Source of the DNA: Pseudodesulfovibrio sp.
Lineage (GTDB): Bacteria > Desulfobacterota > Desulfovibrionia > Desulfovibrionales > Desulfovibrionaceae
Direction of reading: 5' to 3'
Assembly (NCBI GenBank): GCA_016744135.1
Contig: JADGEX010000002.1
Span: 434,001 to 498,000, forward strand
Length of the DNA stretch: 64,000 nucleotides
The notes beneath the pieces were generated by a model. That model made no database searches, was not told where the DNA came from, and saw only the letters and a program-made list of their open reading frames with translations. Shown here in pieces: positions 23,159-59,927 of the stretch; positions within the stretch are counted from its first letter, which is position 1; each line of letters starts with the position of its first letter. A program made the position numbers and the translations under genes.

Positions 23159-23731
23159 TTATCCTTGTATATTCAGAAAGTTCTGGAGTAATTTCGGGCC
23201 GTCCGGTGTGAGGATGGATTCCGGGTGGAACTGGACGCCATGCCATGGCCGGTCTTTGTACTGGATACCCATGATTTCGCCCTGTCGGGTTCGGGCCGTG
23301 ACATCGAGTGTGTCTGCCGCTTTCTCAGCCGGAACAATGAGCGAGTGGTACCTGCACACCTCGAAGGGTGAGTCGAGACCTGCAAAAATGCCTTGCCCGT
23401 TGTGGATCACCTGCGAGGTCTTGCCGTGCATGATCCGTTCGGCGCGCTCCACAGGTGCTCCGGCAAAGTGCCCAAGGGTCTGATGCCCCAGACATACGCC
23501 GAATACCGGAATCGTTTTAGGCAGTCGGCTGAGGAATTCCAGACAAAAACCGGCATTTTCCGGGTTGCTTGGTCCGGGTGAAAGACAAACTCGTTTAAGC
23601 GTGCCGCTTTGTGCCAGATCCAGTACTGTTTCGCGGTCGTTGCGGATGACCACTGGGTCGGCTCCAAGTTGTTGGAAGGCCTGCACCAGATTGAAGGTGA
23701 AGGAATCGAAATTATCTATCAGCAAAAACAT
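23159..23731 (-). CDS. trpG: Anthranilate synthase glutamine amidotransferase
   Basis: A 190-residue class I amidotransferase that feeds ammonia from glutamine to TrpE. The catalytic Cys is in VFGVCLGHQTL, and His and Glu are in GVQFHPES. The start has AAAGGAGG upstream and overlaps the end of trpE by 20 bases, so the two subunits are coupled in translation. PabA is a close relative, but the position between trpE and trpD settles the role. Confidence 0.95.
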   Translation of the reverse strand: MFLLIDNFDSFTFNLVQAFQQLGADPVVIRNDRETVLDLAQSGTLKRVCLSPGPSNPENAGFCLEFLSRLPKTIPVFGVCLGHQTLGHFAGAPVERAERIMHGKTSQVIHNGQGIFAGLDSPFEVCRYHSLIVPAEKAADTLDVTARTRQGEIMGIQYKDRPWHGVQFHPESILTPDGPKLLQNFLNIQG

Positions 23732-25169
23732 CGGTTCCTCCTTTGCCTGTGATGACTTCCAGAATAACTCGTGCCTTGTTGTGACATTCGTTCCACTCGG
23801 ATTCAGCGTCCGAGTCGTACACGATGCCAGCTCCGGCCTGCCAGTGGCAGATGCCGTCTCGAATCCACATGGACCGGATGGTAATGCCGGTGTCGAGGGA
23901 GATAACGCCGTCGTCCAGTCCCATCCAGCCTATGCAGCCGCCATAGGGACCGCGTTCCTGTGGTTCCAGATCGGCGATGATTTCCATGGCCCGAATTTTC
24001 GGTGCGCCGGACAATGTCCCCGCCGGAAAGGTGGATTGAAGGACATCCACGCCATCCAGTCCGTCTTTTAGCTCGCCTTCCCCATAGGAAGTGAGGTGCA
24101 TGACATGGGAGAAGCGTTCAACGTTCATGAATTTTTCGACGGTGACTGTGCCGGGTTTGGAAATACGACCCAGATCGTTCCGTCCAAGGTCGACCAGCAT
24201 GACATGTTCGGCCCGTTCCTTGGGGTCGGCCAACAGTTCTTTTTCCAAACGGATATCTTCTTTTTCGGTTTCGCCTCTCCAGCGAGTTCCGGCGATGGGA
24301 CGTACTTCAAGATGTCCGGCCGAGCTTCTGACCATCATTTCCGGGGATGATCCGAGCAGGGTGGTGCCACAGGTTTTGCCCATGGACGAGCAGTCCGGGA
24401 ATTTCATGTAGAACATGAATGGTGACGGATTGGCCTGTCTGAGGCGGCGATAAATCTTGAAAGGTTCATCCGGCAAAGGCACGGTGAATCGGGTGGACAA
24501 CACCACTTGAATGCATTCGCCTTCGGCAATGAGTTCCTTGCACCGCTCTACGCCGCGCATGTACTCTTCCTTACCGGGATGGACCGTGGGTGTCCCGACC
24601 TCGGGAGCAGTCAGGTCCGCGCCCCATTGAATGGGGGCAGGCATGGGGGTCGCGCCTTTATCAAGGCTGAGATAGCAGCAGGAGTGGCGCAGGTGATCGA
24701 AAAGGACCATTTGTCCGGGCAGGACTAAACACGCCTCGGCATCGGCTGGTTTGCAGCATTCGGTCAGCTTGCGTTCGAACATGCCGGCTACGCCATATCC
24801 GAAGTAGCCGTACAGACCGCGAGTCAGGCCGGGGAGGCCGTCACGCGCGTTGCCACCGGTTGTTTCCTGCGTGATCGAAAGTCGCTTCACGGCCTTTTTG
24901 ATGCCAGTGAGATACTCCATACCTTCCAACTCTTTGAGCTGGGCAAGCCTGTCGTCTGAAACTTCTACCACCAGCTTGCCATCCACGGGGTGGAGCATGA
25001 GTCGATAGTCCCAGGCGATCAAACTGTATCGACCAAGGCGACCATCCACCTCTGCCGATTCCAGCAAAATGCCGGGTTGGTCTCCCACCAGTCCCATATA
25101 GAGGGATATGGTGGTCTGGACGTCAGCCGGGAGCCACTTCCCGTGCTGCGTCAGTGAAATCTTTTCCAT
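23712..25169 (-). CDS. trpE: Anthranilate synthase component I
   Basis: A 485-residue chorismate-using enzyme that makes anthranilate with TrpG. The feedback-inhibition motif LLES (in GILLESAEVDGRLG) is intact, so tryptophan should inhibit it. The catalytic part shows PIAGTRWRGETEKED, AEHVMLVDLGRNDLGR and GTLSGAPKIRAME. Start MEKISLTQ follows AAGGAAAA. The 194 bases between tyrA and trpE hold the internal attenuator described separately. TrpE opens the Trp branch part of the operon. Confidence 0.96.
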   Translation of the reverse strand: MEKISLTQHGKWLPADVQTTISLYMGLVGDQPGILLESAEVDGRLGRYSLIAWDYRLMLHPVDGKLVVEVSDDRLAQLKELEGMEYLTGIKKAVKRLSITQETTGGNARDGLPGLTRGLYGYFGYGVAGMFERKLTECCKPADAEACLVLPGQMVLFDHLRHSCCYLSLDKGATPMPAPIQWGADLTAPEVGTPTVHPGKEEYMRGVERCKELIAEGECIQVVLSTRFTVPLPDEPFKIYRRLRQANPSPFMFYMKFPDCSSMGKTCGTTLLGSSPEMMVRSSAGHLEVRPIAGTRWRGETEKEDIRLEKELLADPKERAEHVMLVDLGRNDLGRISKPGTVTVEKFMNVERFSHVMHLTSYGEGELKDGLDGVDVLQSTFPAGTLSGAPKIRAMEIIADLEPQERGPYGGCIGWMGLDDGVISLDTGITIRSMWIRDGICHWQAGAGIVYDSDAESEWNECHNKARVILEVITGKGGTDVFADR

Positions 25170-25287: not shown

Positions 25288-25322
25288 AAAAAAGGCCGTA
25301 CCCTTTCTGGGGGTGCGGCCTT
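25288..25322 (-). terminator. Intrinsic terminator of the internal trp attenuator
   Basis: On the minus strand the arms 25322-25311 (AAGGCCGCACCC) and 25303-25292 (GGGTACGGCCTT) form a 12-pair stem with one mismatch, a 7-base loop, then six T. It stands 42 bases past the tyrA stop and 119 bases before trpE. Confidence 0.88.
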
Positions 25323-25390
25323 GGTTCACGTTCGATTCCAAGTAACGGCATGAGCCGCACCATTTATGAAGTTTCGTTACGCCACCACCA
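25288..25390 (-). promoter_or_regulatory. Internal Trp attenuator using the 3' end of tyrA as leader
   Basis: Three consecutive TGG codons (25390-25382) lie five codons before the tyrA stop (25366-25364). Just after the stop, GGTGCGGC (25361-25354) is perfectly complementary to GCCGCACC (25319-25312), which is the 5' arm of the terminator at 25322-25292. A ribosome stalled at the Trp codons would leave this segment free and let the antiterminator form; a ribosome that reaches the stop would cover it and let the terminator form. This is the classic trpL layout, but the coding part belongs to an enzyme. Pairings were found by eye. Confidence 0.8.
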
Positions 25391-26134
25391 CTGTGCCCGA
25401 TCTGCGAGCAGGTCGAGATCACCGCCTGCGGCCAGGCTGAGGTAGGACATGAATTTGCGGTTGACTTCCTGAAGAAACGGATTCGATTCAGAAATGATTT
25501 CAAAGAGTTCTGTGTCTTGCGTAAGCATCTTGCGGGCAGAGTCCAGCCTGCGTTTGAACGAGGGGGTGATGAAGTTATCAATACCTTCCACATCTCTGGC
25601 TGCGGCCAAAAAAGCCACGGTGGACGTGAAGTTCAACCCCTGAACAAAGGCCATGGAACGGTCGTGTTCTTCGGCGGTCGTCGAGAAACAGTCGTAGCCA
25701 CATGCCTGCATGAGGCTGGTGACTTTGTTTGCGGCATCTGTATCGGTCTCGCGTCCCGGCGCGACAGCAATCTTGGGTGTAAAATCTTCCGGGATGACTG
25801 GTCCGAAAAGCGGATGCGTACCGACCACTGGACCGTCATAACTTTCTGTCATTGCTTTCATGGGGAGCATTTTGACTGAGCCAACATCGCACAGGATCGT
25901 GGTGCCGTTCAGGTACGGCACCACCTGGTCCAAGACGGATTTCATGGCCGTTACCGGCACACTGAGCAGCAACATGTCGCAGTCGGTGAGAGCCTCGCGG
26001 AGTGTATCCTCGGTGTATGGAAGGTCCAAAGCAATGACAGTGCGTCCGAGATCGGCAAAGGCTTTGAAAAAAAGCCCGCCCATCTGACCGCTTGCGCCCG
26101 CGATGGCGATTGTATGTATATCTGCCTCAGTCAT
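25364..26134 (-). CDS. tyrA: Prephenate dehydrogenase, with Trp-rich C-terminal tail
   Basis: A 256-residue dehydrogenase that makes 4-hydroxyphenylpyruvate for tyrosine. The NAD loop is IAGASGQMGG near the N terminus, and GTHPLFGP and the catalytic His region fit TyrA. It lacks a chorismate mutase part and an ACT domain. The chain ends AQWWWRNETS, and these Trp codons sit at the right distance from an attenuator in front of trpE (see that entry). It starts five bases after the aroA stop with GGATAAGG as ribosome site. Confidence 0.92.
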   Translation of the reverse strand: MTEADIHTIAIAGASGQMGGLFFKAFADLGRTVIALDLPYTEDTLREALTDCDMLLLSVPVTAMKSVLDQVVPYLNGTTILCDVGSVKMLPMKAMTESYDGPVVGTHPLFGPVIPEDFTPKIAVAPGRETDTDAANKVTSLMQACGYDCFSTTAEEHDRSMAFVQGLNFTSTVAFLAAARDVEGIDNFITPSFKRRLDSARKMLTQDTELFEIISESNPFLQEVNRKFMSYLSLAAGGDLDLLADRAQWWWRNETS

Positions 26135-26138
26135 TGCC

Positions 26139-27479
26139 TTATCCGATGATTTTTTTCCATTCGTCCCAGAAGCCGGGGAATGATTTGTTGACACAGGTCG
26201 GATTGTCGAGAGTGACGTCGATACCCGCCAATTGAAACAGGGACATGGACATAGCCATGCGATGGTCGCCGTATGTCGTGAAATCTATTGCATGTCCGTT
26301 GGGCAGCCTGCCGGGGCGGATGATGAGTGTGTCTTCAACGATTTCGGTTTCGGCCTGAGTGCGGGATACTTCCAGAGCACAGGCTTCCAGTCTGTCGGTT
26401 TCTTTGATGCGCAGATGGGCCACATTGGTGATGGTGGTCGGTGAGGTGGCGAATGCTGCGGCGGCGGAAACTGTCGGGACCAGATCCGGGCAACGGCCCA
26501 TGTCCACGGTTATGCCATGCAAGGTGCTCGGTTCAATGAGGATGCCGTCAAAGGTGACTTTGATCGATGCGCCCATCTGGCTGAGAATATCCATGATGGC
26601 CCGGTCGCCTTGGAGCGAATCCGCTGCCAATCCCTTGATGAGTACGGGGCGTCTGCCCACGGCTCCGGCGGCCAGGAAGTAACTGGCGTTGGACCAGTCG
26701 CCTTCCACTCGATAATGTGTCGGATCATAGCCGGTCGGTTTGACAATGAACCGAATTTTGCCAGGGCTGACGGCCTTGATGGAGCGCCACGGTACGGCTT
26801 CCCATTTCTTGCCGTTTTTGATTTCGACTTCGAACCCTGCCTTGAAATCTTCCATGATGCGTAAGGTCAGAGCCACATACGGCCAGGAAACAGCTTTTTT
26901 TCCCGTGACCGTGATTGTGGTTTCATGGTCAGTCAAAGGCGCACCTAGGAGCAGACCGGAGAGGTATTGGCTGCTTTCTTCCAGGGTGATTTCCACCTTT
27001 TTCGAGGTGTAGCCTTTGCTGGTCATGATAAAGGGGAGGAATCCCTCTTTTTCAGCAAATTCGAATGTGGAGCCGAGTTCTTGCAAGGCTGTCACCAGTT
27101 CGGCCATGGGCCGTTCATGCATGCGCTGGGCGCCGTGTACTTTGAAGGAACCGTATCCGGCAGCGGCCACGGCGGTCATCAGACGGCAGGTGGTCCCGGA
27201 TTCGTGCATGAATAATTCGTGCGGTTCTTCATCCTTGTGCTTGCCGTCGGCATTGCCGCCCTTGGGGCCGGACTCCATGCCTGTGACGATGAGTTTCCCG
27301 TCCTTTTCATCGATTTTTGCTCCGCAGGCGGTCAGACAACCGCGTGTGCGGGTGATGTCGTCTGAATCGAGGATAGATGATACTTCGGAGACGCCGTTGG
27401 CCAATGCTGCCGCGATGAGCGTGCGGTGGGAAAGCGACTTGCTGGCCGGTGCATTGATGATAATCGGTTCCTTGGTCAT
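26139..27479 (-). CDS. aroA: EPSP synthase (3-phosphoshikimate 1-carboxyvinyltransferase)
   Basis: A 446-residue enzyme that joins PEP to shikimate 3-phosphate, the step before chorismate synthase. It shows PASKSLSHRTLIAAALA at the N terminus, HESGTTCRLM (in place of the common GNAGT motif), SSQYLSGLL, and the C-terminal RIKETDRLEA. The motif HESGTTCR is a divergent form, so the enzyme is far from the E. coli type. The start ATG overlaps the pheA stop (ATGA). Confidence 0.93.
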   Translation of the reverse strand: MTKEPIIINAPASKSLSHRTLIAAALANGVSEVSSILDSDDITRTRGCLTACGAKIDEKDGKLIVTGMESGPKGGNADGKHKDEEPHELFMHESGTTCRLMTAVAAAGYGSFKVHGAQRMHERPMAELVTALQELGSTFEFAEKEGFLPFIMTSKGYTSKKVEITLEESSQYLSGLLLGAPLTDHETTITVTGKKAVSWPYVALTLRIMEDFKAGFEVEIKNGKKWEAVPWRSIKAVSPGKIRFIVKPTGYDPTHYRVEGDWSNASYFLAAGAVGRRPVLIKGLAADSLQGDRAIMDILSQMGASIKVTFDGILIEPSTLHGITVDMGRCPDLVPTVSAAAAFATSPTTITNVAHLRIKETDRLEACALEVSRTQAETEIVEDTLIIRPGRLPNGHAIDFTTYGDHRMAMSMSLFQLAGIDVTLDNPTCVNKSFPGFWDEWKKIIG

Positions 27480-30440: not shown

Positions 30441-30477
30441 AAAAAACAAGGGCCGCCGGCTTTCGCCCGCGGCCCTT
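30441..30477 (-). terminator. Intrinsic terminator of the aromatic operon leader
   Basis: On the minus strand nine perfect pairs (AAGGGCCGC against GCGGCCCTT) plus an inner GGC/GCC around a GAAA loop are followed by GTTTTTT. It stands upstream of the first enzyme gene and downstream of the leader peptide, so it must be conditional for the operon to be expressed. Confidence 0.9.
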
Positions 30478-30512
30478 GAAGAGGTTTTGTTCAGTTTGTA
30501 TCCACCAGTTGG

Positions 30513-30608
30513 CTACAATGCACCTCTCCCAAGACCACGAGCGTGGCAATACCAATACCAGAAGGTAAAGTTGGAAAAGGATACGTTGGAGACGGTTGTG
30601 GAGTTCAT
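30513..30608 (-). CDS. Leader peptide with FTFWYWY run (31 residues)
   Basis: The frame starts MNSTTVSNVSFSNFTFWYWY and ends CHARGLGRGAL. It holds three Phe, two Trp and two Tyr between residues 11 and 20, an extreme bias. It stops 35 bases before a strong terminator that precedes the aromatic operon. No classical Shine-Dalgarno is evident (AATAAAGCC before ATG). As in pheL and trpL of enteric bacteria, the peptide likely has no function of its own and serves as a sensor of charged tRNAs; here it would sense all three aromatic amino acids. Confidence 0.82.
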   Translation of the reverse strand: MNSTTVSNVSFSNFTFWYWYCHARGLGRGAL

Positions 30609-59629: not shown

Positions 59630-59836
59630 TTAAGACTGTTTCATGATTTTTAAATAAAACACGCGACAGGCACTCAGAAAGCAAGCAACCATAAAGGGCT
59701 TACTTAATATGACAAATGCCATTGCCATAATAAAGCCAACTATTAAAATTACATTATTGTAGAGGGTCAGAGTTTTGACGACACTCCATTCGGCAACTCG
59801 GCTATCTCGTTGAGACCCGTGGTTTTCCGTCTCCAC
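59630..59836 (-). CDS. Possible small membrane protein
   Basis: A 68-codon frame with one long hydrophobic stretch (VILIVGFIMAMAFVILS), starting with GTG and ending ten bases before the lipoprotein gene. There is no clear ribosome site; the coding status is doubtful. If real, it is a single-pass protein co-transcribed with the lipoprotein. Confidence 0.35.
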   Translation of the reverse strand: METENHGSQRDSRVAEWSVVKTLTLYNNVILIVGFIMAMAFVILSKPFMVACFLSACRVFYLKIMKQS

Positions 59837-59927
59837 CTCACAGTGGATTTGGCATTATGATAGAAGCCTGACAGACAAATTCATTCCTGAAATTGCCATC
59901 AGATAAGGCGTTCCTATGATCATAATT

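What the first reader, a model, noticed from the sequence alone, without database searches (positions are those of the whole stretch)
25288..25400. The 3' end of tyrA appears to be the leader peptide of a tryptophan attenuator
TyrA ends QWWWRNETS. The three TGG codons (25390-25382) lie five codons before the stop. Right after the stop, GGTGCGGC (25361-25354) is perfectly complementary to GCCGCACC (25319-25312), which is also the 5' arm of an intrinsic terminator (25322-25292, six T) before trpE. Distances fit ribosome stalling: stalled at Trp codons, the ribosome leaves the antiterminator strand open; at the stop codon it covers it. E. coli trpL ends with WWRTS, strikingly alike. Here a functional enzyme, not a dedicated peptide, would carry the sensor. 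Tyr-branch translation would then be part of Trp control.
Basis: partly seen in the sequence, partly recalled or inferred. Interest (0 to 1): 0.93.

Follow-up and report, generated by a model that had tools for sequence, protein, structure and literature searches.

The report
Enzyme gene's tail senses tryptophan
In a sulfate-reducing bacterium the gene for the tyrosine-pathway enzyme TyrA has its only three tryptophan codons at its very end, just before stretches that can form rival RNA hairpins, one of them a predicted transcription terminator in front of the tryptophan genes, so the enzyme gene itself likely does the tryptophan sensing that a separate tiny leader gene does in other bacteria.

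Summary
In 81 distinct tyrA-trpE junctions from 20 groups, a tyrA tail with Trp codons is followed by a strand that can pair with the 5' arm of an intrinsic terminator. By group medians that strand starts 13-21 nt after the last Trp codon (SD 2.0), while the stop codon wanders from +6 to +42 (SD 8.6). Own strands pair better than swapped ones in 18 of 20 groups. In 69 of 76 measurable attenuator loci TyrA has no other Trp; outside the order 0 of 26. A model built on tyrA tails matches 21 of 24 trpE loci without an upstream tyrA, where stand-alone leaders lie. All 21 model-picked loci from five other families carry it at the tyrA end. Outside the order TyrA lacks the Trp tail, and three genomes read tyrA - free trpL - trpE, so I infer that a leader gene fused to tyrA. 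The regulatory response is untested. The Trp run alone is weak evidence: TyrA often keeps it without an attenuator.

The parts
25364..26194 (-). tyrA (prephenate dehydrogenase, 276 codons): proposed leader reading frame; no Trp codon except the terminal three
   Evidence: Pfam PDH_N; sequence; Trp count
25382..25390 (-). three TGG (Trp) codons, proposed regulatory codons
   Evidence: Trp run of 3 or more in 80 of 81 attenuator-bearing loci
25364..25366 (-). tyrA stop codon TAA, +15 nt after the last TGG
25354..25361 (-). antiterminator 5' strand GGTGCGGC (strand 2), starting +20 after the last TGG
   Evidence: spacing and swap test; shuffles
25338..25342 (-). second antiterminator segment CTTGG, pairs with CCAAG 25324-25320
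25311..25324 (-). shared strand 3 (CCAAGGCCGCACCC): 3' side of antiterminator and 5' arm of terminator
25292..25303 (-). terminator 3' arm GGGTACGGCCTT (strand 4)
25288..25293 (-). T-run of the intrinsic terminator (six T)
23712..25169 (-). trpE, first gene behind the attenuator (then trpG, D, C, F, B, A to about 18705)
   Evidence: Pfam Chorismate_bind and Anth_synt_I_N; the other trp genes named from ORF sequence by recall
30513..30608 (-). 31-codon leader MNSTTVSNVSFSNFTFWYWYCHARGLGRGAL in front of the whole supraoperon, likely first tier
   Evidence: short aromatic-rich ORFs in the same place in 46 of 56 named loci (no chance control)
30441..30478 (-). terminator-like hairpin plus T-run behind the supraoperon leader

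Best explanation
The 3' end of tyrA likely works as the leader-peptide reading frame of a tryptophan-responsive transcription attenuator for the downstream trp genes, taking the place of a dedicated trpL. Predicted steps: when charged tRNA-Trp is scarce, the ribosome behind RNA polymerase would stall at TGG TGG TGG, the only Trp codons of tyrA, leaving strand 2 free; strand 2 would pair with strand 3, the terminator could not form, and trpE-A would be transcribed. When Trp is plentiful the ribosome would run on to the stop codon and cover strand 2; strands 3 and 4 would form the terminator, and transcription would stop after tyrA while Phe/Tyr and chorismate genes stay expressed. Shown here: the sequence anatomy, its conservation, covariation, spacing, the low Trp content of the TyrA body and its relation to stand-alone trpL leaders. 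Inferred: ribosome stalling, termination and read-through, and that the tail arose by fusion of a free trpL.
For: Anatomy confirmed. 81 distinct tyrA-trpE junctions with terminator in 20 groups: by group medians strand 2 starts +13 to +21 from the last TGG (SD 2.0) although the stop codon lies at +6 to +42 (SD 8.6); E. coli trpL has +14. Own strands pair better than swapped ones in 18 of 20 groups, Wilcoxon p 3.6e-5; helix positions alternate G-C and A-T between groups (register chosen for best pairing, so that table leans to the structure). Strand 2 would be free at a stall in 81 of 81 and at least half covered at the stop in 79 of 81. TyrA body Trp-free in 69 of 76 measurable attenuator loci, against 12 of 36 without detected terminator, 6 of 31 not before or overlapping trpE, 0 of 26 outside the order; trpE shows no such difference and aroA, pheA and aroB' smaller ones. 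Model R1 from 43 tyrA tails matches 21 of 24 trpE loci without an upstream tyrA at E below 1e-3 (20 of these 21 show a short WW ORF) and E. coli trpL at 0.0018. 21 of 21 model-picked loci (20 genomes) of five other families have it at the tyrA end.
Against: No expression data. WWW is kept in 20 of 26 TyrA ends with no trpE behind them (overlaps and a contig end left out) and sits in a confidently predicted C-terminal helix, so a protein role is likely. In 18 of 81 loci more than 5% of shuffles pair as well. The window's terminator has one mismatch and the simple scan missed it. Two groups break the footprint geometry: g20, stop at +6, and Salidesulfovibrio, stop at +42. Ten of 36 adjacent loci without a detected terminator still have WWW, two of them detection misses by eye. 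AroB', AroA and PheA also have somewhat less Trp in attenuator loci (p 1e-5, 2e-5, 3e-4), so part of the Trp difference may be lineage-wide. Loci are related, so locus-level p values are too small. The Rfam Trp_leader match is at chance level (E 1.7).
Confidence: 0.9

Rival explanations
1. Translation-coupled attenuator without codon sensing: any slowing of tyrA translation changes the terminator, as recalled for E. coli rph-pyrE; the Trp run is only a TyrA protein motif.
For: WWW is kept in TyrA ends without trpE behind them (20 of 26) and sits in a predicted helix.
Against: Stand-alone leaders matched by the same RNA model carry the same Trp run; the rest of TyrA is nearly Trp-free mainly where the attenuator exists; among tyrA-trpE junctions the third Trp is missing mainly where no terminator is found; the strand is fixed to the Trp codons, not to the stop.
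Confidence: 0.06
2. Ordinary terminator after tyrA; trpE has its own promoter, and the pairing upstream is chance in GC-rich DNA.
For: 18 of 81 loci do not stand out from shuffles; in L010, L012 and L015 the tyrA-trpE gap is 531-864 nt, room for a promoter.
Against: Covariation and fixed spacing over 20 groups; no sigma-70-like site between terminator and trpE in the window (consensus scan only).
Confidence: 0.03
3. The tyrA-tail attenuator is real but arose in place, by TyrA's own C-terminus acquiring Trp codons, not by fusion with a free trpL.
For: Leader peptides are too short for sequence proof of fusion; the C-terminal helix runs on into the Trp run in the model.
Against: TyrA outside the order has no WW at its end (0 of 26) and its shorter forms end about where the run begins; three genomes from two families outside the order read tyrA - free trpL - trpE.
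Confidence: 0.35

Closest known systems
trpL-type ribosome-mediated attenuator (E. coli trp operon; Rfam RF00513 Trp_leader)
   Same: run of Trp codons, antiterminator and terminator sharing one strand, similar spacing from last TGG to strand 2 (+14 in E. coli; +20 here, group medians +13 to +21), tail WWR followed by T S
   Different: the reading frame is a 276-codon enzyme gene inside an operon, not a 14-residue dedicated peptide behind its own promoter; the Rfam gathering score is not reached (15.4 against 41 bits)
E. coli rph-pyrE attenuator (recalled; only a search listing seen)
   Same: translation of an upstream structural gene governs a terminator before the next gene
   Different: recalled as sensing UTP through polymerase pausing, not an amino acid through codons
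Chlamydia YtgCR WWW motif (PMC7755916, abstract and passages read)
   Same: a WWW run inside a structural gene makes a Trp sensor for trp genes
   Different: acts in trans through a repressor; starvation causes loss of transcription downstream of WWW rather than antitermination in cis
Putative attenuator listed for Desulfovibrio vulgaris aroA'-aroB'-aroQ.pheA-aroF-tyrA-[trp] (PMC1173090, passages of text and Table 7 read)
   Same: same supraoperon; probably the first-tier leader seen here at 30608-30441
   Different: placed in front of the whole supraoperon; no attenuator at the tyrA-trpE junction is mentioned in the passages read

Membership tests
Ribosome-mediated trp attenuator (mechanism class) | translated frame with a run of Trp codons just before the switch | tested here: met
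   three TGG at 25390-25382; run of 3 or more in 80 of 81 loci
Ribosome-mediated trp attenuator (mechanism class) | mutually exclusive antiterminator and intrinsic terminator | tested here: met
   by sequence and folding only; 81 loci; own pairing better than swapped in 18 of 20 groups
Ribosome-mediated trp attenuator (mechanism class) | spacing that frees strand 2 at the stall and covers it at the stop | tested here: met
   81 of 81 and 79 of 81 (uniform placement would meet both in 46%); footprint size recalled, the 12 nt beyond the stop codon also in PMC4833913 passages
Ribosome-mediated trp attenuator (mechanism class) | Trp-dependent read-through | not testable with these tools
   needs expression data
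trpL (dedicated leader peptide gene) | short stand-alone leader ORF | tested here: not met
   frame is the 276-codon tyrA
Rfam RF00513 Trp_leader | score above gathering threshold | tested here: not met
   15.4 bits against 41, E 1.7, 25393-25286
rph-pyrE type attenuator | upstream structural gene is the translated frame | tested here: met
   by position:
rph-pyrE type attenuator | nucleotide-sensing by polymerase pausing, no regulatory codons | not tested
   recalled definition; the Trp codons argue against it
T-box or riboswitch | Rfam match at the junction | tested here: not met
   the only gathering-level match in the window is a c-di-GMP-I riboswitch at 59862-59788

The most novel reading that the evidence does not exclude
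In the ancestor of the order Desulfovibrionales a free trpL leader gene lying between tyrA and trpE was fused in frame to tyrA. The enzyme became the leader peptide: its body lost its other Trp codons so that ribosomes reach the sensor, the stop codon drifted freely while the RNA switch stayed locked to the Trp codons, and in Desulfovibrio-type genera the leader was later set free again while TyrA kept the Trp tail.
Probability: 0.58. Interest if true: 0.87.

Novelty: new variant of a known kind. Interest (0 to 1): 0.84.

Why it matters
Attenuator leader peptides are treated as dedicated and disposable. Here a conserved metabolic enzyme appears to be one, in an old and widespread arrangement found in all six families of the order that were sampled, including Nitratidesulfovibrio, the genus of the laboratory strain Hildenborough (Hildenborough itself was not examined). 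Regulation seems to leave a mark on the enzyme: hardly any Trp elsewhere and a Trp-rich C-terminus. It would split one supraoperon into a Phe/Tyr part and a Trp-gated part, and searches that look for short leader ORFs in 5' UTRs would miss it.

Tried and rejected
Trp-run conservation alone as proof: rejected, since WWW is kept in TyrA without an attenuator. Rfam: no match over threshold at the junction. MAFFT alignment A2 put strand 2 of g29 out of register, so pair counting was done on anchored strands and by swapping instead of with the count of structure pairs; R1 therefore holds only the terminator's 8 pairs plus sequence. My terminator finder missed L003 and L034 and picked too long a hairpin in L037; these were not corrected. 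Group labels for one search are GTDB genus codes plus record titles, set by hand, and the group counts in the second Fisher test were entered by hand. L131 was dropped because its contig ends before trpE. Of the TrpE places listed, 130 were examined (30 loci plus 100 fetched); the list itself was capped. The 33 'no trpE downstream' ends include six where tyrA overlaps trpE (L064, L081, L090, L092, L093, L160) and L131; without them 20 of 26 have WWW, and a few of those contigs end soon after tyrA (L178 after 90 nt). One search measured 76 of 81, 36 of 36 and 31 of 33; its outside-order stretch is 270 residues against about 247, and includes C-terminal parts the others lack. One search looked at 27 loci: 21 outside family f1, and six of f1, of which two had tyrA with a Trp tail, two a free leader and two were read on the wrong strand and gave no tail. 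R1 tallies at weak E (248 of 297 at 0.01) include chance matches and are not used as a count of attenuators. Selenocysteine for the mini-ORF: no SECIS-like hairpin, no Pfam match, undecided. Literature: ten searches were counted; no listed title or abstract start describes a tyrA-borne trp attenuator, but subscription journals are not held; PMC545781 holds no 'tryptophan', 'trpE' or 'tyrA'.

Full report
Observation. The minus strand reads tyrA ...QWWWRNETS, stop, GGTGCGGC, then a hairpin AAGGCCGCACCC/GGGTACGGCCTT with six T, then trpE. The antiterminator is longer than stated, because CTTGG 25342-25338 pairs with CCAAG 25324-25320 next to GGTGCGGC/GCCGCACC. The genes in front are aroA' (DeoC/LacD-family aldolase), aroB' (DHQ synthase II), pheA, aroA and tyrA (Pfam), then trpE and the other trp genes (names beyond trpE from recall). 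The closest named relatives are Pseudodesulfovibrio.

Comparative set. TrpE was sought in 199 genomes of the family (178 with a match). I examined 130 of the listed places and 80 named TyrA loci (80 kept of 117). This gave 186 tyrA ends, 150 of them distinct. In 81 distinct loci from 20 groups tyrA is followed by an intrinsic terminator and then trpE (groups set by hand from genus codes and record titles).

Switch locked to the Trp codons, not to the stop codon. Over group medians the antiterminator strand starts 13-21 nt after the last TGG (mean 15.9, SD 2.0), while the stop codon lies at +6 to +42 (SD 8.6). In the window the strand follows the stop. In Nitratidesulfovibrio (...WWWRSHTERGGVRPS, L168) and Halodesulfovibrio (...WWWREDNDTGGVRQ, L174) it lies inside the tyrA coding sequence. 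E. coli trpL, read from NC_000913, has the strand at +14 and the stop at +9. With a ribosome footprint of 13 nt before and 15 nt after the P-site codon start (recalled), strand 2 is wholly free with the last TGG in the A site in 81 of 81 loci and at least half covered with the stop in the A site in 79 of 81. Uniform placement would meet both in 46%.

Covariation and chance. A strand 2 pairs better with its own strand 3 than with strands from other groups in 18 of 20 groups (Wilcoxon p 3.6e-5; single swaps reached the own score in 266 of 1,539). Single positions change from G-C to A-T between groups (register chosen for best pairing, so this table leans to the structure). Dinucleotide shuffles of the upstream strand do as well in 822 of 16,200 trials; 63 of 81 loci are at or below 5%, 18 are not.

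What the Trp run does and does not show. Of 81 loci with terminator, 80 have three or more consecutive Trp and one has two; of 36 tyrA-trpE junctions without a detected terminator 10 have three and 26 have two (Fisher 8e-17 by locus, 6e-4 by hand-entered groups). But of 33 ends with no trpE downstream in the locus 25 also have three Trp; leaving out six overlaps with trpE and one contig end, 20 of 26. The predicted structure puts W269-W271 at the end of a confident C-terminal helix (mean pLDDT 92.9). So the run likely has, or has gained, a role in the protein, and only its company identifies the attenuator.

Low Trp in the rest of the enzyme. Ahead of the terminal run, TyrA has no Trp at all in 69 of 76 measurable attenuator loci (mean 0.12). 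Without a detected terminator 12 of 36 are Trp-free (mean 1.0), where tyrA does not precede or overlaps trpE 6 of 31 (1.19), in other families of the order 13 of 14, and outside the order 0 of 26 (3.96, over a somewhat longer stretch). In the named loci the Trp percentage of TyrA is 0.08 with attenuator against 0.41 (adjacent, no terminator) and 0.53 (not adjacent). Controls in the same order: AroA 1.23 against 1.55 and 1.51 (p 2e-5), PheA 0.88 against 0.84 and 1.21 (p 3e-4), AroB' 0.32 against 0.53 and 0.45 (p 1e-5), AroA' 0.50 against 0.60 and 0.41 (p 0.11), TrpE 1.37 against 1.33 and 1.06 (p 0.11). The five- to six-fold drop is peculiar to TyrA, as expected if ribosomes must reach the sensor without an earlier Trp stall, but a milder lowering in upstream genes exists, and relatedness inflates all these p values.

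Distribution and origin. A covariance model from 43 tyrA tails (R1) matches 21 of 24 trpE loci that lack an upstream tyrA at E below 1e-3; 20 of these 21 show a short ORF with a Trp pair or run, for example MNSFSNTISNSFKGWWWRIQLRGGDVRA. E. coli trpL matches weakly (E 0.0018). In five other families of the order 21 of 21 examined loci (20 genomes) carry the element at the end of tyrA, 18 with trpE in range; these were picked as model matches, so they show where the element lies, not how often. Phylum-wide, 33 of 297 genomes match at 1e-4, 24 of them outside the order. Of 23 such genomes that I inspected, 17 show a Trp run with G-rich strand and terminator-like T-run outside any tyrA, mostly in short ORFs. 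Four of the 23 have tyrA just upstream of a free leader; in three (L326, L327, L330, two families) trpE follows. TyrA outside the order lacks the tail (0 of 26 with WW; 29 of 29 shown from the order have at least WW) and its shorter forms end about where the run begins. I infer a tyrA-trpL fusion in the order's ancestor and later release of trpL; leader peptides are too short to prove it.

Two tiers. Upstream of aroA' lies a 31-codon leader with FTFWYWY, a hairpin and six T. In 46 of 56 named loci the 330 nt in front of aroA' hold a short ORF with at least six aromatic residues in eight (no chance control). So the supraoperon likely has a general aromatic attenuator at its head and a Trp-specific one inside tyrA.

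Relation to known systems. It works like the trpL attenuator but is not a dedicated trpL gene and does not reach the Rfam Trp_leader threshold. A structural gene governing a terminator is known from rph-pyrE (recalled), and WWW in a structural gene as a Trp sensor from Chlamydia YtgCR, acting in trans (PMC7755916, passages). A putative D. vulgaris attenuator is listed ahead of aroA' (PMC1173090, passages). None of the ten counted library searches listed a tyrA-borne trp attenuator in titles or abstract starts; subscription papers are not held.

Verdict. Real, old and well supported by comparative evidence; the regulatory response is untested.

Noticed in passing
window 25273-25196, minus strand (between terminator and trpE): Conserved 25-codon ORF with an in-frame TGA at codon 5: MKGT(TGA)KSHENRKKVKGWEVIPRPLN, with an AAGGAG-type ribosome site. 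Found in 23 of 36 genomes of the genus at E<=1e-5, once each and with the TGA. In the 13 loci chosen for this form length, TGA and following Lys are invariant, and pairwise differences by codon position are 372/218/896. No SECIS-like hairpin, tRNA-Sec over cut-off in 35 of 36 genomes, no Pfam match. Possible programmed UGA read-through microprotein next to trpE.
   Followed up: partly
window 30608-30441, minus strand: Aromatic leader peptide MNSTTVSNVSFSNFTFWYWYCHARGLGRGAL plus terminator before the aro-trp supraoperon. Mailhella-type leaders (L198-L200, L202, L210) have F and Y but no W in the cluster, as if W was lost once trp left the operon.
   Followed up: partly
   Followed up: no
L010, L012 (same genome as L134), L015, L132: The start of the TGA mini-ORF is kept (MRDT-TGA-K) while the rest has diverged; the tyrA-trpE gap is 864, 746 and 531 nt in the first three and 220 in L132.
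   Followed up: no
L105: Halodesulfovibrio-type locus with LWW instead of WWW although strand 2 and terminator are kept.
   Followed up: no
window 59788-59862, minus strand: c-di-GMP-I-GGC riboswitch over Rfam's gathering score.
   Followed up: no
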